DNA of 64,000 bases. Origin: Bacillus pumilus (GTDB taxonomy: Bacteria > Bacillota > Bacilli > Bacillales > Bacillaceae). A model generated the notes under the pieces. The model was not told the origin of the DNA, made no database searches, and was given only the letters and a program-made list of their open reading frames with translations. Below, one piece after another: positions 37,371-57,594 of the stretch. Position 1 is the first letter of the stretch. Each line of letters begins with the position of its first letter. The stretch lies in assembly GCF_003431975.1 (NCBI RefSeq), contig NZ_CP027116.1, positions 1,984,001-2,048,000 of the forward strand. Reading direction: 5' to 3'. Made by a program: the position numbers and the translations under genes.

Positions 37371-37395
37371 TTACCCTTGTCATTAGACAGGGGTT
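37371..37395. terminator. Bidirectional terminator
   Basis: CCCTTGTC and GACAGGGG form a stem with a four-base loop between two converging genes; the flanks are T-rich on both strands. Confidence 0.65.
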
Positions 37396-37793
37396 TAAAA
37401 TTCTAAAAATTTTAATTCGATTGCTTCTCCATTAATTAGCTTCACATACTTCTTATCAAACTTGTAATCATCTAAAACAGTGTTCTCCAACTCAATCAAA
37501 TCTAAGTGATACAAGTCTTTACCATTGACTCCTTCAATTAGAATATAGTCACTTGAATCAAATTCAGTTTTATACCAAATGACAGTTAAATTCGTTTCAA
37601 TGTTAAGCTTATTTGTTAAGTACATGTAAGCATCCAGTGATGTACCGTCTGTAACATCTCTAATTTCTTCTTCATCAATGTTATTAATTACAATTAGATT
37701 GTTTGACTTCTCATTATAAAAATAAGCAAAATCATCTCCTTGATTTTTTAATTGATAAGCGCCTTTTAAGTTATGTAAGTTAAGCATATGTAT
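37395..37793 (-). CDS. Hypothetical phage protein, possible AUA start
   Basis: About 132 residues, acidic, no recognised domain. The first ATG (37787) lies 14 bases from the only RBS (GGGAG), whereas the in-frame ATA at 37793 lies eight bases from it. The upstream gene ends inside this start region, so the two overlap. Start assignment is therefore uncertain by two codons. Confidence 0.6.
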   Translation of the reverse strand: MHMLNLHNLKGAYQLKNQGDDFAYFYNEKSNNLIVINNIDEEEIRDVTDGTSLDAYMYLTNKLNIETNLTVIWYKTEFDSSDYILIEGVNGKDLYHLDLIELENTVLDDYKFDKKYVKLINGEAIELKFLEF

Positions 37794-37986
37794 TTACGTA
37801 TCTCCCTTTTTCATTGTTAGACAAGTCTCTTGCTTCTTGCATTAATTCTTCATTATTATTGCTCAGGCTCATTCCTAGTCGATTTACTTTTGAAAAATCT
37901 TTGTTATGTATCGCTTCTTCAATTGAATCCATTTGTTTTTTCATTTTGTTGTGCAATTTAATCAAACTCAAACTATTTTCTTCTAT
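37780..37986 (-). CDS. Hypothetical phage protein, probable AUA start
   Basis: A 68-codon gene. The stop of tdk and an in-frame ATA share a base (TAATA), and GGGGAG ends seven bases before the ATA. The next canonical start is a TTG five codons on, which lacks an RBS at normal distance. The protein is helical with a charged N-terminal half. Coupling with tdk is likely. Confidence 0.6.
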   Translation of the reverse strand: MEENSLSLIKLHNKMKKQMDSIEEAIHNKDFSKVNRLGMSLSNNNEELMQEARDLSNNEKGRYVNTYA

Positions 37987-38546
37987 TATTTAACTCCCCT
38001 TTCATAAGCGCATTGTCTACATGCTGGCTTATAATCGTTCCCAACTTTAACTTGAGTATTTGAATCATTAGAAACTTCAAGTGAAACCCATGCATCCTCG
38101 CCACAGAACACACAGACTGCATGATGTTTAATTACGTGATCAGCTTTGGCCATAAGATAAGGTACAATTCCAAATGGTTTACCGTACCTGTCCATGTCTA
38201 ATCCAGCAGCAAACACTTTCTTACCTTGTTCAATTAATCGTTCAATGTGGTCAATCATTTGACTTGGGAAAAATTGAACTTCATCGATACAAACAACATC
38301 AGCTTCATTTAATAAATGAAATGGTATACACATCTCGCCTTTGTTTGTTATTTTTATATTAATAGCCTCAACTTTCTTGCCATCATGTGTCACAATAAAG
38401 TCTTCTGAGTATCTATTATCTAAGGACGGTTTGAGAAACATCACTTTCTTTCCAGCCAACATATAACGTTTACCATGACGCTGTAGTGCCGTTGATTTCT
38501 CCGCAAACATACTTCCTACATCAATTGTTAATGATCCTACTGGTAT
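37986..38546 (-). CDS. tdk: Thymidine kinase (type II), non-AUG start
   Basis: Thymidine kinase with the P-loop region DVGSMFAEKST, the Walker B CIDEVQFF and a zinc site CVFCG...CRQC. The first ATG (38510) falls inside the P-loop, so the gene must start upstream. An in-frame TGA lies four codons before the proposed ATA at 38546, and GGAGG is nine bases from it (an ATC at 38549 is six bases away). No ATG, GTG or TTG is available. The usual Gly before Lys in the P-loop is Glu. Confidence 0.85.
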   Translation of the reverse strand: MPVGSLTIDVGSMFAEKSTALQRHGKRYMLAGKKVMFLKPSLDNRYSEDFIVTHDGKKVEAINIKITNKGEMCIPFHLLNEADVVCIDEVQFFPSQMIDHIERLIEQGKKVFAAGLDMDRYGKPFGIVPYLMAKADHVIKHHAVCVFCGEDAWVSLEVSNDSNTQVKVGNDYKPACRQCAYERGVK

Positions 38547-38710
38547 GATTCCTCACCTCCTAATAGAAGCTGTCTATATTTCTTGTAATCTTCTTCATTA
38601 TTAAATGAGAATACAGGCGTTTTGCCTTTTTGAAATGAAATTGTACCACCAACTTGAGTTAGATAGGCTTGTTTCAAAGCGTCTTGTTCAAAAGGAATTC
38701 TAATAACCAT
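38537..38710 (-). CDS. 57-residue hypothetical protein before tdk
   Basis: ATG at 38710 follows AAAGGGGAAA and opens 57 codons (MVIRIPFEQDALKQAY...) whose end overlaps the start of tdk by ten bases; the tdk RBS lies inside it. Translation of the two is probably coupled. No domain recognised. Confidence 0.6.
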   Translation of the reverse strand: MVIRIPFEQDALKQAYLTQVGGTISFQKGKTPVFSFNNEEDYKKYRQLLLGGEESYQ

Positions 38711-38724
38711 ATGTAATTTCCCCT

Positions 38725-39201
38725 TTATTTTAATTTGTATAAAGTCACATCACAATCTCCCAGGATATCATCAATCATTCGTCCAACGATTCGCCAATCC
38801 CCGCCTGCTAAACCGCAGCCTATGCCATGCGGAATTGCGATAGAGCAGTCTTTGTATTTACTATAATCATCACTGACCACATGTTTTAAACTTTTCAAAC
38901 AAAGTTCCATAGCTTCATAATCTGTTTGTCTTGATTTCACACCATAGTTATCTTGAGCAAACAAATTTGCGACTGTTTTACTCTTACTTACATCTACAAA
39001 CTGAGTAGCCCCTAGTAAACCATTTTTACTATTTTTAATTTTTTCATCATCACATAAACGTTTATAGTCTTTATACACATTTGGATATTTACTTTTGATC
39101 TGCTTTGCTAACCCTGCTCCCATGACACCCTTACAATTCACTTGATGGCAGATGATGTCTTTTGTTGTGTCTAATATGTTACCTTCTACAGTCCTGATCA
39201 C
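38725..39201 (-). CDS. Macro-domain protein (ADP-ribose binding)
   Basis: A 158-residue single macro domain with VEGNILDTTKDIICHQVNC, GVMGAGLAKQIK, and the loop IPHGIGCGLAGGDW. Close relatives hydrolyse ADP-ribose-1''-phosphate or remove ADP-ribose from macromolecules. In a phage it could reverse host ADP-ribosylation defence, which is an inference. GTG start behind GGGAGGAGG. Confidence 0.85.
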   Translation of the reverse strand: MIRTVEGNILDTTKDIICHQVNCKGVMGAGLAKQIKSKYPNVYKDYKRLCDDEKIKNSKNGLLGATQFVDVSKSKTVANLFAQDNYGVKSRQTDYEAMELCLKSLKHVVSDDYSKYKDCSIAIPHGIGCGLAGGDWRIVGRMIDDILGDCDVTLYKLK

Positions 39202-39312
39202 TTCAAACCCCTCCTCCCAATTTGATTAAAAGACCGATTTTATTTAGAAATATTTGATGTGTTCAGATTACCATGCAGAATAATCTGTAATGTCTTTATC
39301 AACACCACATTC

Positions 39313-39651
39313 TCAACACTTTACATCTACAGCTATTCCTAAATCAGTTGCTTCGAAAAAGTGATAAATACCTGAATCACATTTCTCTCGATGCTCTTTC
39401 TTAAATTTAATTTCTTCCTTTCTCTCCTTTTCATTTAAAATAAATACGCTGCTCACTCTTAGTCGCTCAATTTCATTTTCAAGCTCTGCGATCTTTTCAT
39501 TGGACTGATACTTTTTTAATTCAATTCTTAAGTTGTCACGTTGACGTTTGATTTTATTGATATAGGATTTAACATTATCAAACATTCGTTCTTCTTCATT
39601 TCTTTCTGCAAAAGTAATTACATCTTTAATAACTCTTTCTTGTTCAGTCAA
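39313..39651 (-). CDS. Hypothetical coiled-coil protein, end possibly interrupted by TGA
   Basis: A 112-residue protein from the TTG at 39651 with a central coiled coil (INKIKRQRDNLRIELKKYQ). It stops at TGA right after ...AVDVKC. The same frame continues for 14 codons, reading ECGVDKDITDYSAW and then TAA at 39,268, which looks like the second half of a CxxC zinc motif. Either the TGA is a nonsense change or it is read through. Function unknown. Confidence 0.6.
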   Translation of the reverse strand: MTEQERVIKDVITFAERNEEERMFDNVKSYINKIKRQRDNLRIELKKYQSNEKIAELENEIERLRVSSVFILNEKERKEEIKFKKEHREKCDSGIYHFFEATDLGIAVDVKC

Positions 39652-39653
39652 AT

Positions 39654-39866
39654 TTAGCGCTCCTCTGATTCCATTGAATTGATAATACTTTTTAATGTAT
39701 AGAATGCTCTTAAGTGATCCCAATCAGATAAGTTACCTGTGTCATTTTCTAATTCACGTTGGTAACTGTTAAGTTCATCACTCGTCATGTAATTAAATTC
39801 ATCAATTTCTGCAGCTGTAAATGCAGATAAATTCGATGTTAGTTTTTTAAAATGTTTTAAATCCAA
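39654..39866 (-). CDS. Small hypothetical phage protein
   Basis: A 70-residue acidic helical protein. TTG at 39866 overlaps the end of the preceding gene, whose last codons carry the RBS GGAAG. It is part of the tight minus-strand gene run. No domain recognised. Confidence 0.55.
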   Translation of the reverse strand: MDLKHFKKLTSNLSAFTAAEIDEFNYMTSDELNSYQRELENDTGNLSDWDHLRAFYTLKSIINSMESEER

Positions 39867-40385
39867 TTAACTCGCTTCCTTTCCCTTTGCCATCTCTAAT
39901 TTCATTTCAAGTAATTCTCTTTCAGTGATAGGTATCAAAGATTTGTTTTCCTGCTCTGTTTTCGATTCTAAATAGAATGTATCGTTGTATGTGATAAACT
40001 CAATAGCACCAGTAAGGTCGTATACAAATACTAAGAAATTTAAACTTTGCATTCTAATGGCATGTGTCAGATTATTTTCTTTAATAAATTTATCCCATTT
40101 TTTAAAGTAGTTTGAACTTTTCTTAAACTGTTTGAAAATATGACCGTCTAATTCTTGTTCTTTTTTGATGAAATGCTTATCATCAATCTCATCAGAATAT
40201 GCTTCATTTATTAAAAGACCTCCATGAAAATCATATGCTGCTTTACTCGCTAAGTCTTCGATCCCAACTAAACTTGAAATTTCCTCGTTCCTATCTTGCA
40301 TAAATTGTCCTTTGATGAAAAATCCATATTCTAGATCTCTGTGTAAGTTAGAAGTTTTCTCCACTTTGTAATAATATTTATCCAT
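39867..40385 (-). CDS. Hypothetical phage protein
   Basis: A 172-residue protein with ATG behind AGGAG at eight bases. It has aromatic-rich segments (YYYKVEKTSN, FLVFVYDLTGAIEFITYND) and a charged C-terminus, with no recognised family. The AT-rich sequence before the RBS belongs to the ACAAATAACATA repeat class. Confidence 0.6.
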   Translation of the reverse strand: MDKYYYKVEKTSNLHRDLEYGFFIKGQFMQDRNEEISSLVGIEDLASKAAYDFHGGLLINEAYSDEIDDKHFIKKEQELDGHIFKQFKKSSNYFKKWDKFIKENNLTHAIRMQSLNFLVFVYDLTGAIEFITYNDTFYLESKTEQENKSLIPITERELLEMKLEMAKGKEAS

Positions 40386-40432
40386 TTTCTATTCTCCTTT
40401 ATATATGTTATTTGTTATTTAAAGAACTTTCT

Positions 40433-41191
40433 TTACCATTCTAAAGCTTCTTCATTTAGCTCAATTAGCAATCTATTTACCGTATCGTAGTCTGGTCTTT
40501 CAGGAATACGTGACACATGAACAGCATCTTTCAACTCTTGATCATAGGCCTCGATCATCTCAAGCGCTTCTTCAAAACTAAACTTTCCTGACCTGCAATC
40601 AATAAGAAAATTTCGATTTGGTCGGAACGTACTAAAGTCCCCAGTCTTAAGAATTTCAATAGCGCTTGTAAGAAGTCTAATGCAATGCATGAAAAATTTT
40701 GTATCGTACCCATGAGCATCTACTAGGTCTTTTCTTGCTGCACCGTTTGAGTTGGTGTTTTTTAGTTTCTGCATTTGAGAATGTGCGTAACCGCCAAATT
40801 TCTTTTGAATGTTCTTAGTTAAAAACAAATGTCTGTTATCGATTAATTTTTGGCCAAGAGATGTTACTCTAAGATAATCTTGATTTCTAACAAATAGTAG
40901 CTCAATGTTATTAGGCACACCTTCCATTGCATCCTTAACAAATTTGTTGATATGAATAATATTGATATCAACATCATCCTTAGTGTTTTTAAAATTCTTT
41001 CCTCCACTGTTGTTATACTCATTGAAGGATTCAAGTCCTAAGTAATACTCCTTTGGCGGGATACAGATACCTTTAAAATCTTTGTCAGACTCTGCTGTAT
41101 TTGTTCCATAAGCATAACTGCCAGTTGGAGCTAAGATAATCGTTCTTTCTTCTAACCAGTTGATATTCGAATTGATTTTTAATTGACTCAT
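40433..41191 (-). CDS. Nucleotidyltransferase of the DNA polymerase beta superfamily (YcgL/RlaP type)
   Basis: A 252-residue protein whose first part carries the nucleotidyltransferase motif GSYAYGTNTAESDKDFKGI (GS and paired Asp). The rest is helical. Such proteins occur in phages and some RNA-processing or toxin systems; substrate unknown. The ATG overlaps the stop of the 51-residue membrane gene upstream (ATGA). Confidence 0.82.
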   Translation of the reverse strand: MSQLKINSNINWLEERTIILAPTGSYAYGTNTAESDKDFKGICIPPKEYYLGLESFNEYNNSGGKNFKNTKDDVDINIIHINKFVKDAMEGVPNNIELLFVRNQDYLRVTSLGQKLIDNRHLFLTKNIQKKFGGYAHSQMQKLKNTNSNGAARKDLVDAHGYDTKFFMHCIRLLTSAIEILKTGDFSTFRPNRNFLIDCRSGKFSFEEALEMIEAYDQELKDAVHVSRIPERPDYDTVNRLLIELNEEALEW

Positions 41192-41343
41192 CTGTTAATG
41201 ACTCCCCATATATGGAATAGTGTTAATACAAGCACAGGCAATACGATTAAGTTTGTGTAGAATGCTCCTGAATAGAATCCTTTGACATATTCAGCAGACA
41301 ACTCTTCGTCTTTTTTAATCTTTGACTTCAATATTTTAATCAT
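41188..41343 (-). CDS. 51-residue single-pass membrane protein
   Basis: ATG at 41343 with GGAGGG upstream. A charged N-terminal half is followed by one transmembrane helix (FYTNLIVLPVLVLTLFHIW). The stop overlaps the nucleotidyltransferase start by four bases, so they are coupled. Function unknown. Confidence 0.62.
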   Translation of the reverse strand: MIKILKSKIKKDEELSAEYVKGFYSGAFYTNLIVLPVLVLTLFHIWGVINR

Positions 41344-41347
41344 AAAT

Positions 41348-41830
41348 TTAATCCCTCCAATCATCACTAGCCTCGATCACCGTAAATCCATTCACATCTC
41401 TTTTTGTATTTTTCTCAGCAATCAGATACATGTTATTAAGCATACTTAATCTTTTAATTTCTTCATTTATCATATTGAAAAAGGTGATTATTGTATCTCT
41501 ACTACTTTCAGGATATACACAGTCGATTTCTGGTTCATAAATATATAAAGCATATTCTAATCTTAAGATGAATTCTCTGTCACAGATGCCAATATTTTTG
41601 ATTTCTTTCCTAAGAGATATTAGTTCACTCTGGAGAAAAGGGACAATTCTTTTTTCATACTCTGGAATCGCACTTTCCAAATCTTCTATGGCAGAATCAA
41701 ATGTAGAGCGTTTAACTTTATAAAGGTTCTCAAATGTTTGTTTAATCGTTCTAAATAGTTTTATTAACAAAACATTAGAAGATTCATCTTTCATATTTAA
41801 CTCAATGCCCCACCATTCTAATTCATCCAC
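41348..41830 (-). CDS. Hypothetical helical phage protein
   Basis: A 160-residue, mostly helical protein from GTG at 41830 behind AAGGAG. Ends just before the membrane-protein gene. No recognised domain. Confidence 0.6.
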   Translation of the reverse strand: MDELEWWGIELNMKDESSNVLLIKLFRTIKQTFENLYKVKRSTFDSAIEDLESAIPEYEKRIVPFLQSELISLRKEIKNIGICDREFILRLEYALYIYEPEIDCVYPESSRDTIITFFNMINEEIKRLSMLNNMYLIAEKNTKRDVNGFTVIEASDDWRD

Positions 41831-41869
41831 CGTACCACTCCTTCGAAATAAATATAATTTATTTTTTAT

Positions 41870-42028
41870 TTAATATCCTCTGCCGTACGAAGTTGTCTGT
41901 ATTCGATATGTATACTCTTCGTTCCCTTGAAATAGTGGAACGATCTTTACTGTCTTGCCTTTTTTCAGGTACTCTTCTACAAGTGCCATTGCTTTATAGA
42001 AACTCTTAACTTCTGTAACGCTTTCCAT
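41870..42028 (-). CDS. 52-residue hypothetical protein
   Basis: ATG at 42028, AGGAG eight bases upstream, 52 codons starting MESVTEVKSFYKAMALVEEY and ending in a Tyr/Arg-rich tail. Good RBS and tight packing support it. No domain. Confidence 0.6.
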   Translation of the reverse strand: MESVTEVKSFYKAMALVEEYLKKGKTVKIVPLFQGNEEYTYRIQTTSYGRGY

Positions 42029-42089
42029 TAATCAAACTCCTTTCAATAAAATCAACGTTTTAAACTAAAGGGGCAATAGCCCCACAGTT

Positions 42090-42578
42090 TTAATTAGAGT
42101 CGTAAACAATTTTATATTTCAGATCCGCTGCCCAACTTGTGTCAATGTCTTCTAGGTCTGTGATATAAATGATTTTTTCAACCGCTCCTATTTCATTTAA
42201 CTCTTGGAATATAGCCTTTCTCATTGCTTCGTTTTCTACGTGACCCTTTATTGGATAAATTAAAGCAATATCAATCCCTTCGGCATAAACGTCTCTACAT
42301 TTCATTTTAATAGTGTCTAAAATAAACACGTTTTCACCACAATTAAACCTCTGTCCTATCACAAAGTTTCTGTTATTCAAACAACTAATGTTTGATCTTT
42401 TCAGGATATTTTTATCCATTGTTCTAAGTAGAACTTTGACATCTTTGAAGTTCTTTTGAATTAGATCGAAAACCATAGGAAACTTTTGGTGATAATGATT
42501 CCCTGTAAGAATCGCTTCACTTTCCTCAGATTCTAAAAACTCAAGAATTTTGTCCTCTGCTTGACCTCTTCCATTCAT
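42090..42578 (-). CDS. Hypothetical phage protein
   Basis: A 162-residue protein. The ATG at 42578 is nine bases after GGAGG; a TTG three codons earlier abuts the RBS. An alternating beta/alpha pattern (VKVLLRTMDK, IDIALIYPIKGHV, KIIYITDLED) suggests a Rossmann-like fold, perhaps a nuclease or phosphodiesterase, but I do not recognise a family. Confidence 0.55.
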   Translation of the reverse strand: MNGRGQAEDKILEFLESEESEAILTGNHYHQKFPMVFDLIQKNFKDVKVLLRTMDKNILKRSNISCLNNRNFVIGQRFNCGENVFILDTIKMKCRDVYAEGIDIALIYPIKGHVENEAMRKAIFQELNEIGAVEKIIYITDLEDIDTSWAADLKYKIVYDSN

Positions 42579-42651
42579 TAGTATCAACCTCCATAATTTG
42601 TTGCATATCCAGTATAGAGTTTATTGGTATTAAATTAACAGCTAAATGAAC

Positions 42652-43071
42652 TTAAAAAGGAAACATTTCTTCATCTGACATTTTAATAATAAAATCTTTT
42701 CTGTAATCGGCCATAGTAATAAAGTGAAAGCAAAGTTGGTTTTGACAAATATAATTAAAGTAAAGGGTTCTATCTTCATAATCAGCCAGGCTATCCAGTT
42801 CATTAAATATGTTTTTCGCTAATACCGTATGCCAATTCTCTTCGTCTGTTGTATTCCATAACCAACCGTACCCGTAACCTTCAATATCAATCCATGGTAA
42901 TTCATATGGAAACTCTTCATCATCATACACATGGTATTGAAATTCAAGATGCTCGTATAAGCTTGTAGTCATTTTTATTCGCATTGGAATTTTGCTGTTC
43001 AACTGACCGTATTCTAATAATTTAGCACCTTTGGGCAGAACATGATTTAGAATTTTATCTATGCCAATCAT
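42652..43071 (-). CDS. Hypothetical phage protein
   Basis: A 139-residue protein rich in aromatic residues and acidic loops. The ATG at 43071 directly abuts AAAGGAG; the in-frame ATA four codons later lies nine bases from it, so this may be another non-AUG start. No domain recognised. Confidence 0.55.
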   Translation of the reverse strand: MIGIDKILNHVLPKGAKLLEYGQLNSKIPMRIKMTTSLYEHLEFQYHVYDDEEFPYELPWIDIEGYGYGWLWNTTDEENWHTVLAKNIFNELDSLADYEDRTLYFNYICQNQLCFHFITMADYRKDFIIKMSDEEMFPF

Positions 43072-43079
43072 CTCCTTTT

Positions 43080-43418
43080 TTAAATGTTGTTCTGCTCAAA
43101 CTTTATTCTGACAAACTCTTCATGTAGCCTATTAAACTCTTTTTTGTTTATGTATGCTTTACCGTCATCTTTGACATCGAATAGCTTTAGGAATTCTTTA
43201 TTGGCCTTTACTGCTTCAATGGCAATTGATGAGCTGACCCATTCACATTCCTCAGTCAGTTGTAACACTTCACTTAATTCAAAGAGTCGCTCCAGCGCAA
43301 GTGGATTTTGATTTGTTTTAATATGTAACAGGTCTCTTTTTTTCTCTAAGATGTCTGATTTAAGCTTGTATTTGCTTTTCTCTAATTCATTTAGTCGTTG
43401 GTGCGCTTCACTCTTTAT
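43080..43418 (-). CDS. Hypothetical phage protein, probable AUA start
   Basis: The frame is open for 112 codons from the ATA at 43418, which is eight bases after GGAGG and one codon after an in-frame TAG. It gives a protein with a basic coiled-coil N-terminus (KSEAHQRLNELEKSKYKLK). Starting at the first conventional start (GTG, 43268) would lose 50 residues and has no RBS. The RBS lies in the end of the upstream gene. Confidence 0.6.
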   Translation of the reverse strand: MKSEAHQRLNELEKSKYKLKSDILEKKRDLLHIKTNQNPLALERLFELSEVLQLTEECEWVSSSIAIEAVKANKEFLKLFDVKDDGKAYINKKEFNRLHEEFVRIKFEQNNI

Positions 43419-43421
43419 GGT

Positions 43422-43616
43422 CTACACCTCCATTAGTTTAAGATCTTTAAGTTTATTTAAGGTGTACTCATCGACATTTCTTATGCACGAGCAATAATCA
43501 CATCTAATTTCATAGATGTCTTCAATATCTAATGCTGGAGTATAAGTGTAATAGTAATCAACCAAAGAATATTTATGAGAGCAGTCTACCTTTTTCTTTT
43601 TCTTGAACCATAACAA
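43422..43616 (-). CDS. Small zinc-ribbon-like protein
   Basis: A 64-residue protein from TTG at 43616 with GGAGGG upstream. CSHKYSL and RCDYCSCI suggest a zinc-binding pair. A similar arrangement (CPHEDTYLVN...KCRNCYG) occurs in the gene at 47,667-47,861, so the two are probable paralogues. Function unknown. Confidence 0.6.
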   Translation of the reverse strand: MLWFKKKKKVDCSHKYSLVDYYYTYTPALDIEDIYEIRCDYCSCIRNVDEYTLNKLKDLKLMEV

Positions 43617-43677
43617 GTCGAACCCTCCAATGAATTTATTATTTATTAGTTTAAAATTCAGATTTTATGTAGTCATT

Positions 43678-43896: not shown

Positions 43897-43918
43897 TGAA
43901 TTCCTCCCTTTAAATAAA

Positions 43919-43974: not shown

Positions 43975-43980
43975 TATAAA

Positions 43981-45302: not shown

Positions 45303-45319
45303 TATAAACCTCCATATTG

Positions 45320-46776: not shown

Positions 46777-46782
46777 TTAAAT

Positions 46783-48245: not shown

Positions 48246-48983
48246 TCAGCTTTTCTTTTGTCTCCAGTTGGATTCTCTTATTAATTCAAATTTCCACCCA
48301 TCATAATCTGAACGATGTCCCATTAGACAATTCTTTATTGCTTTTCTATGTAATTTATATTTTTCTGCAAAAGGACGCAACCCCGCTACATAAAAGCTAT
48401 CTCCTTTGGGCGGTATAGCTATAAAATGCAGTTTTGCATTAGTTAAATCTCTATTCCTATTGTTTACTTCTCTACTTACAAAACAACAAGTCGAGAGGGA
48501 ATACACTTTTTGATTCTTTGGTACCCCTTTTTGTTTAATATCTTTATCTAAAAATATTTTTCTTTGTTCAAATGCGTCTTTCTCATAACCTTCAATTAAC
48601 TCTATATCTTCCAAGAAATATTCAAAGCAGTGCCACCTTTCACAAACTCTTACACCAGCAGCTCCATAGTCTGGATATCTCTCGCATTTTGTATCATAGC
48701 ATCGCTCTAGCATTCCATTCCATACAGTATAAGCAGCCTTATTAGAAACCATTTTAGTATTCCCTAAATAACCAACATTGAACACTGATTTCTCAAACCT
48801 GTCTTTTATAGTACCTCTTAAAATATGAACTTTTTCCGCTGTACTTCTATACCCCGTGGCTTTGAACTCTAGCAAATATCTGTTTGATTTGCCTGGTTTA
48901 GTCATGATTTTATCTATAATTGTGAAAGTTTGTCCCTTCTTATTGTTAAAAGTTCGACCAATAAAATCGTCAATTTTAGTCAA
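48246..48983 (-). CDS. HNH/AP2-type homing-endonuclease-like protein after nrdF
   Basis: A 245-residue protein with [20 protein letters not shown] and [18 protein letters not shown], the core of phage HNH/AP2 homing-type endonucleases. Its TTG start lies in the last codons of nrdF. SPbeta has an HNH gene (yosQ) at the matching place, in an intron-bearing nrd operon; here the nrd genes are uninterrupted, so it looks like a free-standing endonuclease. Confidence 0.78.
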
Positions 48984-49962
48984 ATAGAAAGTCCTCGTCT
49001 CTCAATTTTTCCACTTGTGCTTTTTTGTAGCCGTTCCCTTGCATTGAGAAGAAGTCATGTGACTTTGTTTTTGTATTAAGTCCGTTCAATACAATTGGGT
49101 TAATCTCTTCTTCTTCAAAGTAAGGGGCAAATCCAAGGTTCATTAACGCTTTATTGGCATTGTAACGAATGAACTTTTTCACATCATGCGATAAATTGAC
49201 TTGGTCATAAATATCTTCCGTATAATGAAGCTCATTTTCATAAAGCTCGTTCAAAAGGTCAATTGAGAAATCATATAGCTCTTTTTGCGTTTCAGGTGTT
49301 TGTTTGTTGTAAATTTCTTGCGCTAATAATCCAACGTACACACCGTGAATCGCTTCATCACGCAAAATCAAGTTAATGATTTCACCGCTTTGCATGAGCT
49401 TTCCTTGTCCATAGAAATAAAGCGGGTAGTAAAAACCACTGTAAAATAGGAAGCTTTCTAAATAGACAGAAGCAACCATTGCTTTAAAGAGGGAAATCGG
49501 ATCGTCCTTTTGAATCGAACGGTATAAACTGACAATCATATCTGCTTTCTTTTGCAGGAATTTATTCTTCTTGACCCATTCAAACACTTCACTGATCGTT
49601 TCAGTTGGTGCGAGTGTCATGAAGATATTGGAGTATGATTTCGCATGCACCGCATTTTCCATCATTGCCATAAAGTTGAGTACCGCTTTACGCTGATGGC
49701 CGTCCACATGTTCAGCAACAATCGGCATCCCTGTATTTCCTTGTTCTGTATCAAGTAAAGTCAGTCCAGCAAGCACCTTCATGTACGTATCTCGCTCTTT
49801 TTCACCAATTATTCTCCAAGGTAACAAGTCTCCTTGTAATGAGATTTCCTCAGGAAGCCAGAATTGCTTCACATTTTGGTTGTAAAACATCTGTGTGAAT
49901 TCATCCTCGTGTTTTGACCAATCTGCAGCTGTGTATGTAGAATTTTTGTTTAAATTTGTTAT
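48976..49962 (-). CDS. nrdF: Ribonucleotide reductase beta subunit NrdF, AUA start
   Basis: A 328-residue class Ib small subunit carrying the dimetal-tyrosyl cofactor, with [21 protein letters not shown] and [11 protein letters not shown]. Homology to Bacillus NrdF extends upstream of the first ATG (49890): the codons there read [13 protein letters not shown], a conserved NrdF N-terminus. The frame begins at ATA 49962, eight bases after GGAGG, with an in-frame TAA two codons earlier. No ATG, GTG or TTG is possible. Partner of NrdE upstream. Confidence 0.93.
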
Positions 49963-50033
49963 TTTTTATTCCTCCAAACGAAAAAATTTAAAAATTTACG
50001 TTTCAGTACTTGTAAAACACCTATGTTTGTTGT

Positions 50034-50077: not shown

Positions 50078-50086
50078 TGAGTAATA

Positions 50087-52702: not shown

Positions 52703-53061
52703 TATAAGTGGTTTTTACCTGTTACAAACTTTGCTATTGTAAATTCAGATTCTGATTCTAAATATTCACTCTCTTTAGAAATTCCAGAATTAATCTTTGC
52801 CATTTCTTCATATCCCTTGGCCATCTCTTCATAAAAACTTGTATCTTCAAGTTTCCCAACCTCAAAGTAATGTAATAAGTGATTTTTAGGTACAAGATTT
52901 TTTTCTCCAAATTCATTAACAGATAGCACATCACCAGGTTCTACGATGTAAGATGTTCCATCAGGATTATGAACAGTTGTCACTGTTTCAACTACTTCAA
53001 GGTCTACTAGATGTCTGGTATGTACATACGGTTTTTTTAATTTTCTTACAGCTGCTCCCAT
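52702..53061 (-). CDS. Hypothetical phage protein before nrdI
   Basis: A 119-residue protein with ATG behind GGGGGAA. It has a beta-rich core (DGTSYIVEPGDVLSVNEFG) and an acidic C-terminal helix. Coupled to nrdI by a one-base overlap. No recognised domain. Confidence 0.6.
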   Translation of the reverse strand: MGAAVRKLKKPYVHTRHLVDLEVVETVTTVHNPDGTSYIVEPGDVLSVNEFGEKNLVPKNHLLHYFEVGKLEDTSFYEEMAKGYEEMAKINSGISKESEYLESESEFTIAKFVTGKNHL

Positions 53062-53100
53062 TATATTTCCCCCAATTTTTATTTATATGAAACTGTGATT

Positions 53101-53412
53101 TTATAGTAAATCTCCATCAGTAAGCAATACCATTTCTTCATCGCTTGTGATATCTTTTAATACCTCTTTAAGTGGAACTAAATTTCTGTCTTCTCCAGGT
53201 GCTCTTCCATACCTCATAGCAGCGTAAATCTCTCCAACTTCAATCAGTTCTTTAGATAAATCTCCTTCATCATCTGCAGTATCCTTTTTATAAAGTTCCA
53301 TAGCCTTTCCCTTTGTATTTGCTTTAATTAACGAATAATAAGGATCATGTACCTCATAAAACTTCATTTTGCGTTTGAAAATTCGCTTAAAAAAGCTCAG
53401 TAATAATTTCAT
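53101..53412 (-). CDS. Small phage protein with basic N-terminus
   Basis: A 103-residue protein with a basic N-terminus (KLLLSFFKRIFKRKMKF). The second of two adjacent ATGs (53412) lies seven bases after GGAGG and is preferred. Acidic C-terminal part. No recognised domain. Confidence 0.6.
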   Translation of the reverse strand: MKLLLSFFKRIFKRKMKFYEVHDPYYSLIKANTKGKAMELYKKDTADDEGDLSKELIEVGEIYAAMRYGRAPGEDRNLVPLKEVLKDITSDEEMVLLTDGDLL

Positions 53413-53457
53413 CATATATCCTCCATTTTCTAATTTATATAAAATCAAATCAATATC

Positions 53458-53485
53458 TTGTATTCTCTCAATAAATCCGTATACT
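53458..53485 (+). promoter_or_regulatory. Plus-strand promoter of the Ser/Lys-rich peptide
   Basis: TTGTAT and TATACT are separated by 16 bases, about 50 bases before the small ORF at 53,534. Confidence 0.5.
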
Positions 53486-53533
53486 ATATTTAGTTATACA
53501 GAACACATTTTCCCTCGATAGGTGGTGATTCCC

Positions 53534-53677
53534 TTGGCAAAGTCTAGCAGCAGAAGAGTTTCATCTTCAAAACTTGCAACTAAAGCTTCTAAAGTACTTA
53601 ATTCTAAATCTTCAAGTAAGACAGCTAAGAGTTTAACTGGATCAGTTCTTTCTCAAGCAAAGGCTAAAAGAAAGTAA
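53534..53677 (+). CDS. 47-residue Ser/Lys-rich basic peptide
   Basis: TTG at 53534 behind GGTGGTGAT opens 47 codons beginning MAKSSSRRVSSSKLATKAS and rich in Ser, Lys, Ala and Thr, with no acidic residue that I can see. Composition resembles nucleic-acid-binding tails. It has its own promoter and opposes the neighbouring genes. A DNA-binding or packaging accessory role is conceivable but unproven. Confidence 0.6.
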   Translation: MAKSSSRRVSSSKLATKASKVLNSKSSSKTAKSLTGSVLSQAKAKRK

Positions 53678-53727
53678 CTGTATTGAGGTATGTTGGTTAG
53701 GAGATGGCTTAAGTCATCTTCAATCCT

Positions 53728-53952
53728 TCATATCTTCTTATTGATTTTTGTGAACCTGTCGATCTCTTTCCCATCAACAACAACTTTTCCAAAGAACCTC
53801 TCTTTAGGTCTTGCCCATAATACAGTGCCGTCCATATCATGGTAAACAACAAGCTCTTCTTCTGTTTCTGTATGAATGACTTCTCCAACGAGTTTATAGG
53901 TTCCGCCCTTATAATGTTTGAAGTCACACATGATATGCTCAAATATGTCTAT
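53728..53952 (-). CDS. DUF1653 family protein, possible AUA start
   Basis: The core HYKGGTYKLVG...EELVVYHD...LWARPKERF is the DUF1653 (SH3-like) pattern. The family-typical ATG is at 53931 but has only TTGAG as RBS. An in-frame ATA at 53952 lies six bases after GGGGGAG, with an in-frame TAA immediately upstream. Either start is possible; the longer form adds seven residues. Confidence 0.72.
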   Translation of the reverse strand: MDIFEHIMCDFKHYKGGTYKLVGEVIHTETEEELVVYHDMDGTVLWARPKERFFGKVVVDGKEIDRFTKINKKI

Positions 53953-54105
53953 TTAATTCTCCCCCTCAAACTTCAATTTCAATCGTTCATAGTCAAGTCT
54001 TTCTCGCTCTTCTTTTTCCTTCCGGAACTCAATCCTACGAGCTTCTTCTGCTTCCTTAAGTTGCAGCTCATATTCAGCCCAGTCATTCTCAGTAATTATT
54101 CCCAA
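53953..54105 (-). CDS. Charged coiled-coil peptide
   Basis: About 50 residues from TTG at 54105, very rich in Glu, Lys and Arg (EAEEARRIEFRKEKEERER), a clear coiled coil. The frame is open further upstream, so the start is uncertain. It overlaps no other gene on this strand. Function unknown. Confidence 0.45.
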   Translation of the reverse strand: MGIITENDWAEYELQLKEAEEARRIEFRKEKEERERLDYERLKLKFEGEN

Positions 54106-54122
54106 CTTATCAAGCTCATTCT

Positions 54123-54329
54123 TTACATAGCTGTCCTCATAAATCTTTTTTTGGCTTGGTGCTCGTTATAAACAATAGTGCTTGGCTCTTCTTCAAAATC
54201 AAAAACTTGTTTAACAATTAATATGCCACCATCTTTAGTCACGATTGTAGTTGCATCGTAAAATTGATTAGCATGAATGAACCCAACCTCTTTGTCAATT
54301 AAATCAGTTGGTTCTGTTATAAAGTACAT
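54123..54329 (-). CDS. Small hypothetical protein
   Basis: A 68-residue protein from ATG six bases after GGAGG. Beta-rich; no recognised domain. First in a run of small genes (53,728-54,532). Confidence 0.6.
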   Translation of the reverse strand: MYFITEPTDLIDKEVGFIHANQFYDATTIVTKDGGILIVKQVFDFEEEPSTIVYNEHQAKKRFMRTAM

Positions 54330-54340
54330 GAGATACCTCC

Positions 54341-54532
54341 TTAATTTTCCTCTAAATTCAACACAAGAACATTTTTATATGGATCTAGTTGAATTTCATC
54401 GCTTGTCTCTTCTCCATCAATTCTGAAACTAACTCTTGTGTCTCCGTTAAAATCAAGTTGATCTTGTAATGCTTTGATTACATCACTTACTTTGGGCTTA
54501 CTTAGCTTTCCTTTAAACTCATCATATGCCAT
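54341..54532 (-). CDS. Small hypothetical protein
   Basis: A 63-residue acidic protein with ATG behind AAAGGAGG. Contains DTRVSFRIDGEETS. No recognised domain. Confidence 0.6.
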   Translation of the reverse strand: MAYDEFKGKLSKPKVSDVIKALQDQLDFNGDTRVSFRIDGEETSDEIQLDPYKNVLVLNLEEN

Positions 54533-54553
54533 TTAGAATTTCCTCCTTTTGTT

Positions 54554-54916
54554 TTACATCTTCTTATCTAGAATATCTTTAATACTTTTTAAAGTTTCTT
54601 TATACTCACTATCTAATCCACTTACATCAAGATTTGTTGAGATTCGATAACTTCCTGAGTTGTCATACATTATGATGAAAGCCTCCGTGTCGTCATCTTT
54701 AGCACTGAAAGTGATATCGTGAAGTTCAACCTGCTCTGCATCATTTTCTTGTTTTAGTTGCTCAATATAATCAGGCTGCATCATGTTGAATAGCTCGTTA
54801 ACTGTGGTGAATCTTACTTGTTCCAATATGCTATCCTCTTTATAATCAAATGAATGAAAATAAAGATTAAATGTTATGTAACCTTCTACTGAATTTCCAT
54901 GCTTGGTGTATTGCAT
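54554..54916 (-). CDS. Hypothetical phage protein
   Basis: A 120-residue acidic protein behind GAGGAGG. Beta-strand N-terminus (GYITFNLYFHSFDY) and helical C-terminus. No recognised domain. Confidence 0.6.
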   Translation of the reverse strand: MQYTKHGNSVEGYITFNLYFHSFDYKEDSILEQVRFTTVNELFNMMQPDYIEQLKQENDAEQVELHDITFSAKDDDTEAFIIMYDNSGSYRISTNLDVSGLDSEYKETLKSIKDILDKKM

Positions 54917-54959
54917 CCTATCCTCCTCATCTGATTTCTCTTTGAAATCATCCTTTTAT

Positions 54960-55253
54960 TTAAAAATTAACAACCCCATCCCACTCTTCTAATTCTTCAA
55001 TTTCTTTATCAATTTCTCTATTACTCAATAAATGATCCTTAACTGTAATAGCAATTTTCTTAAAAACACCCTTAAGCGATAATTGGGTAGTTCCATTAAA
55101 TGGGTTAACGCTTCGATAAACAATTTTGTTTGTTTGATTGTTTTTTACACTAACTTGAGTTATTGACCAGCCTAAACTACTTTTTTTAGCAAAAAAAGTG
55201 ATTACTAGAGTGTAATCATCAATTACAACTAGCTTTTTAAAATTCTCCATCAT
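54960..55253 (-). CDS. Hypothetical phage protein
   Basis: A 97-residue protein with ATG behind AGGAG. Two adjacent ATGs. Beta-rich first half, acidic end. No recognised domain. Confidence 0.58.
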   Translation of the reverse strand: MMENFKKLVVIDDYTLVITFFAKKSSLGWSITQVSVKNNQTNKIVYRSVNPFNGTTQLSLKGVFKKIAITVKDHLLSNREIDKEIEELEEWDGVVNF

Positions 55254-55282
55254 TTAACACTCCTTACTTTAAAATAAAACTT

Positions 55283-55648
55283 TTATTTATCTATCTTGCT
55301 AAATAATTCAATTTGGGTTGGTGAACATTTGGCTAAAGTAAGAGTAAATTCAAATTTTTTATCAATCAAACTTTTGGAAATTTCAATTGTTTTCGTTTTT
55401 AATATCTTGTAATGCTTTGTTTGTCCTTCAGTTTCAATGTGAACAAAACATTCTTTAGGATGTTCATTTTTAAACATCAGTAATAATCGATCTTCTGGTT
55501 TTAGTGTGTAAGTATTATCACTACGAAATTTCAACCCTTCTTCTACCTCTTCAACATCAATCTTATTACCCACAAGAATATCTTCAATCTTATTAGGCAA
55601 CCATCTGTTACCATCAATAGACGTGATTCTAAGTTCGTTGATAATCAT
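55283..55648 (-). CDS. Hypothetical phage protein
   Basis: A 121-residue protein with ATG seven bases after GGAG. Mixed alpha/beta, several cysteines near the C-terminus are isolated. It lies directly downstream of the conserved-spacer element at 55,665-55,687. Confidence 0.6.
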   Translation of the reverse strand: MIINELRITSIDGNRWLPNKIEDILVGNKIDVEEVEEGLKFRSDNTYTLKPEDRLLLMFKNEHPKECFVHIETEGQTKHYKILKTKTIEISKSLIDKKFEFTLTLAKCSPTQIELFSKIDK

Positions 55649-55664
55649 CCTTTATCTCCACCTT

Positions 55665-55687
55665 TAAATATATGTAATTTGTATTTT
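55665..55687 (-). promoter_or_regulatory. Conserved 17-bp spacer element with weak promoter
   Basis: The sequence AAAATACAAATTACATA is identical to the promoter spacer at 57,167 and is followed by TATTTA as a -10. The -35 position (CAAAAT) is poor. It overlaps the stop of the 43-codon membrane gene. Confidence 0.5.
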
Positions 55688-55817
55688 ATTTTGATAGAAT
55701 TGTAGTAGGTAGCAGAAAGCCACCCAAGTATCCTGCTAAGAATGCAACTAATGCCCATTTAATTAATGTTAGCCAGAATTTCTTATCAAGTTGTTTACTC
55801 TTTTTCAATTTTTTCAA
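55686..55817 (-). CDS. 43-residue single-pass membrane protein
   Basis: TTG at 55817 is seven bases after AAGGTG and opens 43 codons with a basic start (KKLKKSKQLDKKF) and one helix (LIKWALVAFLAGYLGGFLLP). It overlaps the end of the upstream gene. Function unknown. Confidence 0.58.
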   Translation of the reverse strand: MKKLKKSKQLDKKFWLTLIKWALVAFLAGYLGGFLLPTTILSK

Positions 55818-56091
55818 TGATGTACACCTTACCTTCTTCTATGGCAATATTCACAAGAATTTGAGTCCCGTTATACTCGAAAAGATATTCATTTGATCCA
55901 GCAAGTGCTGCAATTTCTTCTTTTAATTCTTCACCAACAACCTCTAATTTTCTTGGAAATCGTGGAATTTTTCCAACACCTTTGGATAGGTTAATAGGAG
56001 CTGTCGATAATCGTTGTTCTCCATAAAACTTACCGTCTTTCCCTCTAAATGTAACTGTAACGAAATCTTCTTTAACATTAGCTTTACTCAA
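55795..56091 (-). CDS. Hypothetical phage protein
   Basis: A 98-residue protein from TTG at 56091, overlapping the preceding stop; AAGGTG six bases upstream. Beta-rich with FRGKDGKFYGEQRLS. No recognised domain. Confidence 0.58.
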   Translation of the reverse strand: MSKANVKEDFVTVTFRGKDGKFYGEQRLSTAPINLSKGVGKIPRFPRKLEVVGEELKEEIAALAGSNEYLFEYNGTQILVNIAIEEGKVYIIEKIEKE

Positions 56092-56362
56092 CTATTACAC
56101 CTTCCTTTTTAAGCTTATCAATTATTTCTTCAACACCCTCTTTAACAATAGAAGACGCTTCATTTTGCATAGTCTCGTATGGGTAAGGTTGGAGACAAAG
56201 TTCGTCTAAAACATCAATTTTTCCCTTTAAAGACTTCTTTGAGATTGTAAGATTGAAAGTGATTTTATCCCTTAGCCGTTTACATAGATACCAACGTGTC
56301 TTTGCATGATCAGTAAATCCAAGCTCTCTCATCTTCTCTTCTTCTAAAATATTAAACTTCAT
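56084..56362 (-). CDS. Hypothetical phage protein
   Basis: A 92-residue, mostly helical protein with ATG eight bases after GGAG. Contains DHAKTRWYLCKRLRDK. No recognised domain. Confidence 0.58.
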   Translation of the reverse strand: MKFNILEEEKMRELGFTDHAKTRWYLCKRLRDKITFNLTISKKSLKGKIDVLDELCLQPYPYETMQNEASSIVKEGVEEIIDKLKKEGVIVE

Positions 56363-56388
56363 TCATCATGCTCCATTCCATTTTAGGC

Positions 56389-56427
56389 TTATGCTGCGTG
56401 ACTAAAACCATATAATTTAACAGGCAT
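56389..56427 (-). CDS. Possible 12-residue ORF
   Basis: ATG at 56427 follows AGAGGGTGAAAAAC and encodes MPVKLYGFSHAA before TAA. The RBS is convincing and the gap is otherwise empty, but the ORF is too short to prove. Confidence 0.3.
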   Translation of the reverse strand: MPVKLYGFSHAA

Positions 56428-56442
56428 GTTTTTCACCCTCTT

Positions 56443-56565
56443 CTATTTACTATCTTTATTTAGTCTATCTAATGCCTTTAAAAGCATATTAAGTGATTCC
56501 TTGTCGCCCATTTCATTTCGATTTGCCTCAATAAAGCCTACGGCTGTAATTAATTTTTCTTTCAT
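56443..56565 (-). CDS. 40-residue hypothetical protein
   Basis: ATG at 56565 is seven bases after GGAGG and opens 40 codons forming an acidic-basic helix (LITAVGFIEANRNEMGDKES). No domain recognised. Confidence 0.58.
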   Translation of the reverse strand: MKEKLITAVGFIEANRNEMGDKESLNMLLKALDRLNKDSK

Positions 56566-56598
56566 TTCATATCCTCCATTCTCTATAAAACTTGAATT

Positions 56599-56712
56599 TT
56601 ATTTCAAAATTTCGCCCAAGATAGCAAGCAAAAACATTCCAGCGCTGCCAACTGCACCAAACCACTTTGAAGCATCTAATGACTTTATGAATATGATATT
56701 TTTACTTATCAT
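56599..56712 (-). CDS. 37-residue hydrophobic peptide
   Basis: ATG at 56712 overlaps the previous stop (ATGA). The C-terminal half is one helix (WFGAVGSAGMFLLAILGEIL). No separate RBS; coupled translation likely. Function unknown. Confidence 0.5.
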   Translation of the reverse strand: MISKNIIFIKSLDASKWFGAVGSAGMFLLAILGEILK

Positions 56713-56891
56713 AGATCAATTAAATGCAGGCCATCCATTCCATAGACCTTTCCACTTTCGGTTATTTTGCCATTGTTCTTCATTACCCTCAATGCGTTTT
56801 CAGCTTGTTTTTGATTAGAGTAAATTTTGGGATGATAGTAATTTAGGTAATTGCCAACACCACTCTTAGAAGCGATAACGAACATATTCAT
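56709..56891 (-). CDS. 60-residue hypothetical protein
   Basis: ATG at 56891 is seven bases after GGAGAG; an earlier in-frame ATG lies in the RBS region. Basic, mixed secondary structure, no recognised domain. Confidence 0.57.
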   Translation of the reverse strand: MNMFVIASKSGVGNYLNYYHPKIYSNQKQAENALRVMKNNGKITESGKVYGMDGLHLIDL

Positions 56892-56908
56892 TTTTGCTCT
56901 CTCCATTC

Positions 56909-57136
56909 TCATTTTTTATAGGGCTTAATATGTTCAATCCCAAGTACTTTCAGCGTCTTCTTTATATTCATCCCCTCACATTTTTCTCGAATTTTCTCGC
57001 TCAATTCTTCAGCGCATTTACCGCAGCAATTAAACTCAATTCTGTCTTCCGAGCTTTTTGCATTTTCTTCTGTTAATCTTAAACATAAGGGGTATTTCTC
57101 AACCCCTTCGCTACAAATTTCGCATATGTAGTTCAT
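56909..57136 (-). CDS. Small Cys-rich zinc-binding protein
   Basis: A 75-residue protein with CEICSEG and FNCCGKCAEE, a likely four-cysteine zinc site. ATG behind AGGAG. First gene after the strong promoter at 57,161-57,189. Function unknown. Confidence 0.65.
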   Translation of the reverse strand: MNYICEICSEGVEKYPLCLRLTEENAKSSEDRIEFNCCGKCAEELSEKIREKCEGMNIKKTLKVLGIEHIKPYKK

Positions 57137-57160
57137 TGATTCTCCTTAGCTGTTACATCG

Positions 57161-57189
57161 ATTATATATGTAATTTGTATTTTAATCAA
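57161..57189 (-). promoter_or_regulatory. Strong phage promoter with the conserved 17-bp spacer
   Basis: TTGATT and a perfect TATAAT flank AAAATACAAATTACATA. The start point would lie about 20 bases before the zinc-protein gene. The same spacer occurs at 43,946 and 62,189 (one or two changes). Confidence 0.8.
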
Positions 57190-57222
57190 TACTTTTTATA
57201 TGTTATTTTTAATTTATTATGA

Positions 57223-57402
57223 TCATATGTTCTTTTTTATTTCCTCTAACAAAACCCATGACTTAACAATCTTAGGTTCTATCAATTTCCACATTTCATC
57301 GTCAATTGAAGCTGCTTCTTCAAGAGTCGTATGTATATAATTCAGATTGCTATGTACAGTCTCCAGATCATCTTCCATCCTAGCTTTTTCCCGTTCGCTC
57401 AG
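57223..57402 (-). CDS. Hypothetical protein, start uncertain (CUG or AUG)
   Basis: The frame is open from an in-frame TAA before GGCGGTG. CTG at 57402 lies seven bases after GGTGA; an ATG at 57378 has GGGA ten bases away. The protein of 51-59 residues is acidic and helical (MEDDLETVHSNLNYIHTTLE). Confidence 0.48.
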   Translation of the reverse strand: MSEREKARMEDDLETVHSNLNYIHTTLEEAASIDDEMWKLIEPKIVKSWVLLEEIKKNI

Positions 57403-57417
57403 AATTGTTTCACCGCC

Positions 57418-57594
57418 TTAATGCAAGGGAATGTGGTACGTCCAGCTATCTACAAATTTGTTATCATATGTACGTTCTTGAATCTCACAGGTGAATCCTT
57501 TCCTACGTCTAACAAACACTTCTGCTTTTACTTTGGTATCAAACTTCTTTGGAACTCTTGTTCCGTTCCATAATACTCTAAAATAATTCTCTAT
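57418..57594 (-). CDS. 58-residue basic protein, only AUA start available
   Basis: The frame begins at ATA directly after the TAG of the upstream gene and reads ENYFRVLWNGTRVPKKFDTK, ending SWTYHIPLH. The first conventional start codon would be about 27 codons in. RBS placement (GTGGAG three bases away) is poor, so translation may rely on coupling. Function unknown. Confidence 0.48.
   Translation of the reverse strand: MENYFRVLWNGTRVPKKFDTKVKAEVFVRRRKGFTCEIQERTYDNKFVDSWTYHIPLH

What the first reader, a model, noticed from the sequence alone, without database searches (positions are those of the whole stretch)
37395..57594. Recurrent AUA (non-AUG) start codons in prophage genes
In at least four genes the only in-frame start at the right distance from a Shine-Dalgarno sequence is ATA. 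nrdF (49962): GGAGG plus 8 bases, in-frame TAA two codons upstream, and conserved NrdF residues before the first ATG. tdk (38546): GGAGG plus 9, in-frame TGA upstream, and the P-loop precedes the first ATG. 43418: GGAGG plus 8, directly after an in-frame TAG. 37986: TAATA stop-start overlap, GGGGAG plus 7. Weaker cases are 37793, 53952, 57594 and possibly 43062 and 47284. AUA starts are very rare in bacteria because IF3 rejects them. A cluster in one prophage suggests tolerated or deliberate AUA initiation, perhaps to keep these genes low in the lysogen or through a phage factor.
Basis: partly seen in the sequence, partly recalled or inferred. Interest (0 to 1): 0.85.

Follow-up and report, generated by a model that had tools for sequence, protein, structure and literature searches.

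The report
Phage genes starting without AUG
A Bacillus virus lying dormant in its host's genome appears to start several of its genes with AUA-type codons that ribosomes normally reject, and related viruses keep this unusual choice in some of the same genes, which suggests that weak starting is a feature and not an error.

Summary
The window carries part of an SPbeta-like prophage (about 128 kb by its low GC). ATA stands at Shine-Dalgarno (SD) distance, with no usable ATG/GTG/TTG, at tdk (38546), a yotK homologue (37986), a DUF1653 gene (53952), nrdF (49962), 43062 and 43418. At SD spacing 6-10 ATA is in excess in this prophage (10 of 58 non-standard sites, 1.7 expected), but not at spacing 13-17, in host DNA, or in three Herelleviridae phages. 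It is not sequencing error: separate genomes share it. The yotK start is ATA or ATT in 36 of 38 loci; tdk is ATA in 4 genomes and ATT in 1; of five close homologues of the 53952 gene four have ATA and one ATG at the same codon. Two SPbeta families outside the window behave alike: yorY (ATT, 14 of 14 read) and an ORF without annotation in the SPBc2 record (ATT or ATC, 16 of 16 read). nrdF and 43418 are not conserved; 47284 is an ordinary ATG; 37793 and 57594 stay ambiguous. Best reading: SD-anchored, IF3-discriminated ('AUU-class') initiation that keeps output low, as in infC and ccpN. No phage tRNA or second IF3 was found. Expression and IF3 response are untested.

The parts
37986..38546 (-). 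tdk (thymidine kinase), starts at ATA 38546 (or the adjacent ATC 38549); SD GGAGG 38556-38560
   Evidence: ATA in window, G020, G081, G082; ATT in G080; Pfam TK from residue 4
37780..37986 (-). yotK homologue (68 aa), start ATA 37986 overlapping the tdk stop (TAATA); an ATA also precedes it directly
   Evidence: start ATA or ATT in 36 of 38 loci
37395..37793 (-). unknown gene, ATA 37793 at SD spacing 8 or ATG 37787 two codons downstream (ambiguous)
   Evidence: from the SD to the ATG identical in 5 genomes (window included), but it overlaps the coding end of the yotK homologue
42652..43062 (-). unknown gene, start ATA 43062; the upstream ATG 43071 abuts the SD
   Evidence: no homologue in the phages compared; weak PHROG matches
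43080..43418 (-). yosX-like gene, start ATA 43418 after GGAGG; relatives start elsewhere
48976..49962 (-). nrdF, start ATA 49962 after GGAGG; relatives have other starts
53728..53952 (-). DUF1653 gene, start ATA 53952
   Evidence: ATA in 4 of 5 close IMG/VR homologues, ATG at the same codon in 1
57418..57594 (-). 58-aa ORF, ATA 57594 directly after the in-frame TAG of the upstream gene, poor SD
   Evidence: same arrangement in 4 of 4 phages with a match; start or stop read-through undecided
38556..38560 (-). SD GGAGG of tdk (spacing 9 to ATA)
49971..49975 (-). SD GGAGG of nrdF (spacing 8)
43427..43431 (-). SD GGAGG of the 43418 gene (spacing 8)
43072..43078 (-). SD AAAGGAG of the 43062 gene
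53959..53965 (-). SD GGGGGAG of the DUF1653 gene (spacing 6)
37994..37999 (-). SD GGGGAG of the yotK homologue (spacing 7)

Best explanation
These are real translation starts of the AUU class: AUA here, AUU or AUC in orthologues. A Shine-Dalgarno sequence places the 30S subunit, and the host's initiator tRNA (anticodon CAU) pairs with a codon mismatched at its third base. IF3 works against such pairing, so each gene makes far less protein than an AUG version would. In part of the set (yotK, tdk, and in SPbeta yorY and ORF 128118) selection holds the third base at A, T or C, so low output, possibly responsive to the IF3 level, is a maintained trait of SPbeta-like phages. In others (nrdF, 43418) AUA looks like a recent, tolerated local change. 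Shown: positions, enrichment, conservation, codon exchange. Inferred: initiation at these codons, low yield, IF3 dependence, benefit.
For: ATA enriched at SD spacing 6-10 in the prophage, not at spacing 13-17, and not in host DNA, EZ-2018a or three Herelleviridae phages. Genes with a strong SD and no standard start: best codon ATA in 12 of 30 in the prophage and its three closest relatives (orthologues counted repeatedly), ATA/ATT/ATC/CTG in 0 of 19 in host stretches. yotK: 30 of 30 IMG/VR loci ATT (13) or ATA (17), 24 distinct contexts; 10 of 30 have no ATG/GTG/TTG between the in-frame stop and this codon; tree: one change to ATT needed, ATA in both distant clades; two distant homologues start with TTG and ATG at about the same place. 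tdk ATA in 4 genomes, ATT in 1. 53952: ATA or ATG at one codon, the ATG with a weaker SD. yorY ATT 14 of 14 read, no standard start. ORF 128118 ATT 10, ATC 6 of 16 read, no standard start. youA: ATT in SPBc2, TTG in 3 relatives at the same column. Host infC itself reads as ATT after GGAGG+9, at the only IF3_C match. AUA/AUU reporters in S. aureus give about 10-30% of AUG, with extended SDs.
Against: No protein or ribosome data. nrdF and 43418 ATA are not conserved. SPBc2 (ATA 3 of 61, 1.8 expected) and EZ-2018a (3 of 81, 1.9) show no clear ATA excess. The controls are not all flat: in the four related phages ATA is mildly high at spacing 13-17 (19 of 429 against 12.5, p=0.048; 15 of 287 against 8.3, p=0.02, frames of 60 aa or more), ATT is high at spacing 0-3 (16 of 190 against 7.4, p=0.004; window alone 6 of 50 against 2.0) and 18-22 (35 of 646 against 25.3, p=0.04), and ATC at 13-17 (9 of 152 against 3.4, p=0.007). 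20 of 30 yotK loci have an in-frame standard codon upstream, 15 of them 2-3 codons away, in or next to the SD. SD strength at the eight window ATA sites (-9.0 to -16.1 kcal) overlaps that of 31 standard ORF starts (mean -9.9; first-start calls, not all certain).
Confidence: 0.8

Rival explanations
1. Sequencing or assembly error (ATG misread as ATA).
For: None found beyond the rarity of ATA starts.
Against: Separate assemblies (B. pumilus 36R_ATNSAL = G020, three IMG/VR prophages) have ATA or ATT at the tdk and yotK codons, and G081 and G082 at 53952; SPBc2 RefSeq itself lists 6 ATT and 3 CTG starts in 185 CDS.
Confidence: 0.02
2. Neutral tolerance: strong SDs make AUA good enough, so AUA drifts in and out without selection for weakness.
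For: nrdF and 43418 ATA are local; 53952 has ATG in one relative.
Against: In yotK, yorY and ORF 128118 G never appears at the third base in the 30, 14 and 16 IMG/VR loci read, although A/T or T/C exchange in two of them. These loci are related, so independent events are few (one change to ATT in the yotK tree), and no formal test was made.
Confidence: 0.3
3. Translational coupling: ribosomes finishing the upstream gene re-initiate at the nearby AUA, whatever the codon.
For: tdk, the yotK homologue, 37793, 43418, 53952 (window) and 57594 lie at or over the upstream stop.
Against: nrdF lies 273 nt after nrdE; SPBc2 yotK starts 83 nt after yotJ, and ORF 128118 follows a gene on the other strand; in G081 and G082 the 53952 start has other upstream sequence.
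Confidence: 0.25
4. Start lies elsewhere: an upstream codon abutting the SD (GTG/ATG) or a downstream ATG; or, for 57594, TAG read-through.
For: 20 of 30 yotK loci have an upstream in-frame standard codon, 15 of them 2-3 codons away; 47284 and SPbeta nrdI are cases of this kind.
Against: 10 yotK, 14 yorY and 16 ORF 128118 loci have none; tdk's and nrdF's Pfam domains begin before the first ATG.
Confidence: 0.12

Closest known systems
AUU/AUA-started infC, ccpN, cvfC1, citZ (PMC13009471) and E. coli infC/pcnB (recalled; cited in that paper)
   Same: AUU-class start, SD at normal spacing, conservation of the non-canonical codon among orthologues, low yield expected; host infC here reads as ATT after GGAGG+9
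   Different: those are single host genes; here several genes of one phage lineage, with the codon moving among ATA, ATT and ATC
SPbeta (SPBc2, NC_001884) annotated ATT and CTG starts
   Same: 6 ATT and 3 CTG of 185 CDS in the record; yotK is the orthologue of the window's 37986 gene
   Different: no ATA is annotated there; bnrdI ATT is doubtful because GTG or TTG lies two codons upstream in 40 of 40 IMG/VR loci; ORF 128118 has no annotation in that record

Membership tests
AUU-class (IF3-discriminated) start-codon genes | ATA/ATT/ATC at SD distance, no usable ATG/GTG/TTG | tested here: met
   for tdk, nrdF, 43062, 43418, 53952, 10 of 30 yotK loci, yorY, ORF 128118; not met for 47284
AUU-class (IF3-discriminated) start-codon genes | non-canonical codon conserved among orthologues | tested here: met
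   met for yotK (36 of 38), tdk (5 of 5 close homologues; a 35%-identical one in EZ-2018a has ATG), yorY (14 of 14), ORF 128118 (16 of 16); not met for nrdF and 43418; mixed for 53952
AUU-class (IF3-discriminated) start-codon genes | strong or extended SD | tested here: inconclusive
   eight ATA sites -9.0 to -16.1 kcal; 31 standard starts mean -9.9; sites were noticed partly for their SD
AUU-class (IF3-discriminated) start-codon genes | initiation shown at the codon; lower yield than AUG; IF3 dependence | not testable with these tools
   needs reporters, initiation profiling, N-terminal peptides
SPbeta-like prophage | SPbeta gene content in a large low-GC prophage | tested here: met
   low GC over about 36-164 kb of the joined region (ends not mapped); homologues of SPBc2 yotK, yosX, nrdF, yomF, youA, yorM, yomS and the dUTPase in it

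The most novel reading that the evidence does not exclude
SPbeta-like phages keep a set of genes under AUU-class starts as a translational circuit tied to the host's IF3-to-ribosome ratio: the same control that governs infC, borrowed so that tdk, yotK, yorY and others rise when start-codon proofreading relaxes, for example on entry into slow growth or on induction.
Probability: 0.2. Interest if true: 0.82.

Novelty: new variant of a known kind. Interest (0 to 1): 0.6.

Why it matters
AUU-class starts are treated as rare exceptions (infC, pcnB, ccpN). Here a phage lineage uses them repeatedly and keeps them through changes between ATA, ATT and ATC, which makes 'selection for a weak start' testable. 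Gene finders that allow only ATG/GTG/TTG shorten or miss such genes: tdk would lose the start of its P-loop domain, and ORF 128118 has no feature under the match in 10 of 23 phage records, 2 of the other 13 being records without annotation.

Tried and rejected
Phage initiator tRNA or other tRNA: none in the window, the prophage, SPBc2, G080 or G081. Phage IF3: one IF3_C match in the genome, the host's. Greedy orphan listing and the first SD tallies were too noisy or counted one SD more than once; replaced. The six-phage family scan is noisy: 71 mixed families with many chance codons (TTA 10, ATA 8, GCA 6, ATT 5 and others); only hand-checked families are used, and the output was cut. nrdI and 47284 as AUU-class starts rejected. 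yorM left open: ATT at the start column in 14 of 14 IMG/VR loci and in 4 distant homologues, but an ATG lies two codons upstream next to the SD in 5 of 6 loci checked. Region gene 87909 (ATC) left open: two relatives have ATG next to the SD. Genome searches gave few loci: tdk region in 2 of 44 genomes, yotK in 5 of 80, the genome-contig scan one locus. The 18 phage records with yotK were not read one by one, apart from SPBc2 and Goe11. Ten literature searches: one useful paper (PMC13009471: passages and section 10 seen). The six aimed at non-AUG starts in phages (four of them returned nothing, being strict) and two on SPbeta (10 of 288 listed in the latter) showed, in listings only, no description of AUA starts in SPbeta-like phages. 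The SPbeta review PMC8270828 has no 'start codon' in its text (passages). The SPBc2 genome paper and two ribonucleotide reductase papers by Lazarevic are not held, so they may mention unusual starts.
Full report
What is there. The window (G000:C1:1984001-2048000) holds, from about 36 kb on, one end of a large low-GC prophage that continues to about 164 kb of the joined region (the ends were not mapped). Its genes match the SPbeta phage SPBc2.

The codons. Six are solid as reading-frame starts with an SD and no usable standard start: 38546 (tdk), 37986, 43062, 43418, 49962 (nrdF), 53952. In tdk an ATC, and in 37986 another ATA, directly precedes the named ATA, so the exact codon is open; both are AUU-class. 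37793 has an ATG two codons on. 57594 has a poor SD and follows an in-frame TAG. 47284 is followed by ATG, which SPBc2 and Goe11 also have.

More than chance. I took every codon 6-10 bases from a 6-base or longer SD match, with an in-frame stop within 45 bases upstream, an open frame of 40 aa or more, and no standard codon in reach of the same SD. In this prophage ATA takes 10 of 58 non-standard sites, 1.7 expected from trinucleotide frequency (p=6e-6). At spacing 13-17 it takes 4 of 108 (3.1 expected); in 284.5 kb of host DNA 3 of 163 (3.3); in EZ-2018a 3 of 81 (1.9); in SPBc2 3 of 61 (1.8). In 150 kb of three Herelleviridae phages of Bacillus (two of which share nrdE similarity with the window): 2 of 49 (1.2). 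Five of the ten prophage sites have frames of only 44-58 aa and some may be chance; with 100 aa or more the figure is 5 of 17 against 0.5 (p=1e-4). Pooling the prophage with its three closest relatives (G080, G081, G082) gives 21 of 225 against 6.5, but these are related, so the p value is not to be trusted, and the controls of the pool are not flat: ATA 19 of 429 against 12.5 at spacing 13-17, ATT 16 of 190 against 7.4 at 0-3 and 35 of 646 against 25.3 at 18-22, ATC 9 of 152 against 3.4 at 13-17 for long frames. By gene: of 844 greedy genes in these four phages, 30 had a strong SD and no standard start; the best codon was ATA in 12, ATT 1, ATC 1, CTG 1. Orthologues are counted repeatedly (tdk alone gives three of the ATA), and two of the twelve are a doubtful 104-aa frame. 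In host stretches 19 of 401 genes were of this kind, none with those codons; in EZ-2018a 4 of 161, none; in SPBc2 7 of 220, two with ATT.

Relatives. tdk: ATA in the window, G020, G081 and G082; ATT in G080; a 35%-identical homologue in EZ-2018a has ATG. The window's 37986 gene is the orthologue of SPbeta yotK. A scan of IMG/VR with SPBc2 yotK gave 30 loci: 13 ATT, 17 ATA, 24 distinct contexts. Ten of the 30 have no ATG/GTG/TTG between the in-frame stop and this codon; in the other 20 there is one, in 15 of them 2-3 codons upstream, inside or next to the SD, in 5 of them further upstream. With the window, SPBc2, G020, G080-G082 and two distant homologues the total is 38: ATA 22, ATT 14, ATG 1, TTG 1. 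The tree needs one change to ATT, and ATA stands in both distant clades (root drawn at the midpoint). So ATA is likely old, and independent events are few. The two distant homologues start with ATG (G007) and TTG (G017) at about the same place: one codon off in an ungapped alignment, in register with a one-residue gap once their starts are chosen by hand.

The DUF1653 gene (53952): 8 IMG/VR loci; of the 5 close ones 4 have ATA and 1 (G080) has ATG at the same codon, there with a weaker SD; 3 distant ones could not be aligned at the start. nrdF: ATA only in the window; the phage relatives start otherwise, and the host copy starts with GTG (starts read by eye). 43418: relatives start elsewhere. 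43062: no homologue in the phages compared, weak PHROG matches only.

Beyond the window. SPBc2's own record has 6 ATT and 3 CTG among 185 CDS. yorY: 15 loci found, 14 read (L129 dropped, match begins inside): all ATT, no standard start upstream. An ORF with no annotation at SPBc2 128118-128327: 18 loci found, 16 read (L197 and L198 dropped, matches begin inside): ATT 10, ATC 6, 7 contexts, no standard start. Of 23 phage records with this ORF, 10 have no feature under it, 2 have no annotation at all, and 11 call it hypothetical protein; the matching PHROG begins at residue 15. youA is ATT in SPBc2 and TTG in three relatives; yotH is CTG in SPBc2 and ATG in G081, G082 and Goe11. The SPBc2 annotation of bnrdI as ATT is doubtful: GTG or TTG lies two codons upstream in 40 of 40 loci. 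In the window's prophage and its three relatives a yomS homologue outside the window (region 130162) has ATA in 4 of 4, with a GTG three codons upstream inside the SD, while SPBc2 has TTG, and a 393-aa gene with a P-loop motif (region 87593) has ATA close to a strong SD in the 3 phages where it was found.

How it most likely works. Shown: position, enrichment, conservation, exchange among ATA/ATT/ATC and with ATG or TTG. Inferred: the SD holds the 30S subunit, the host initiator tRNA pairs with AUN, IF3 discriminates against it, and little protein results. The nearest measured case is S. aureus, where AUA of infC and ccpN and AUU of cvfC1 were seen as starts, and reporters of cvfC1, ccpN and citZ gave about 10% of AUG in poor medium, up to 30% for ccpN in rich medium (PMC13009471, passages and section 10 read); the paper also states that the ccpN non-canonical start is conserved in B. 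subtilis. The host's own infC reads as ATT after GGAGG+9 (my reading of the frame). No phage tRNA or IF3 was found. Coupling to the upstream gene is possible for several window genes but not likely for nrdF, SPBc2 yotK or ORF 128118.

Selection or drift. In yotK, yorY and ORF 128118 the third base is A, T or C and never G in the IMG/VR loci read (30, 14, 16). This favours selection against AUG, but the loci are related and no formal test was made. nrdF and 43418 fit drift.

Novelty. AUU-class starts are known, and ATT starts were already annotated in SPbeta. New here, as far as the library searched shows (listings only, and key SPbeta papers not held), is ATA used repeatedly in an SPbeta lineage, the conservation with third-base exchange, and the link to the same genes across phages.

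Noticed in passing
L061:28118-28327 (NC_001884.1 128118-128327): A 69-aa ORF in SPBc2 with an ATT start and a strong SD has no annotation in that record; matches in 23 phage records (SPBc2 included) and 18 IMG/VR loci.
   Followed up: yes
L061:20481-20870 (bnrdI of SPBc2): Annotated with an ATT start, but GTG or TTG lies two codons upstream in 40 of 40 IMG/VR loci; the annotation is probably off.
   Followed up: yes
57418-57912: An in-frame TAG directly followed by ATA separates two ORFs in the 4 related phages with a match: a weak start or stop read-through.
   Followed up: partly
region 73036 (outside the window, minus strand); 37787-37793: The string ATACATATG follows an SD in two different genes, with ATA at normal spacing and ATG too far; in one relative of the first it reads ATACTTATG.
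   Followed up: no
48976-49962 and G000:C1:1727855-1728765 (L002): The prophage nrdF is 96% identical in DNA to a second nrdF copy in the genome over 911 bases, but the two starts differ (ATA against GTG).
   Followed up: partly
region 87593 downwards (outside the window, minus strand): A 393-aa gene with a P-loop motif has ATA 5 bases after AAGGAGG in the 3 phages where it was found.
   Followed up: partly
L061:10881-11597 (yorM): ATT at the start column is kept between SPbeta and four phages at about 27-28% protein identity, while the ATG two codons upstream has changed to ATA in SPBc2 and ACG in L116.
   Followed up: partly
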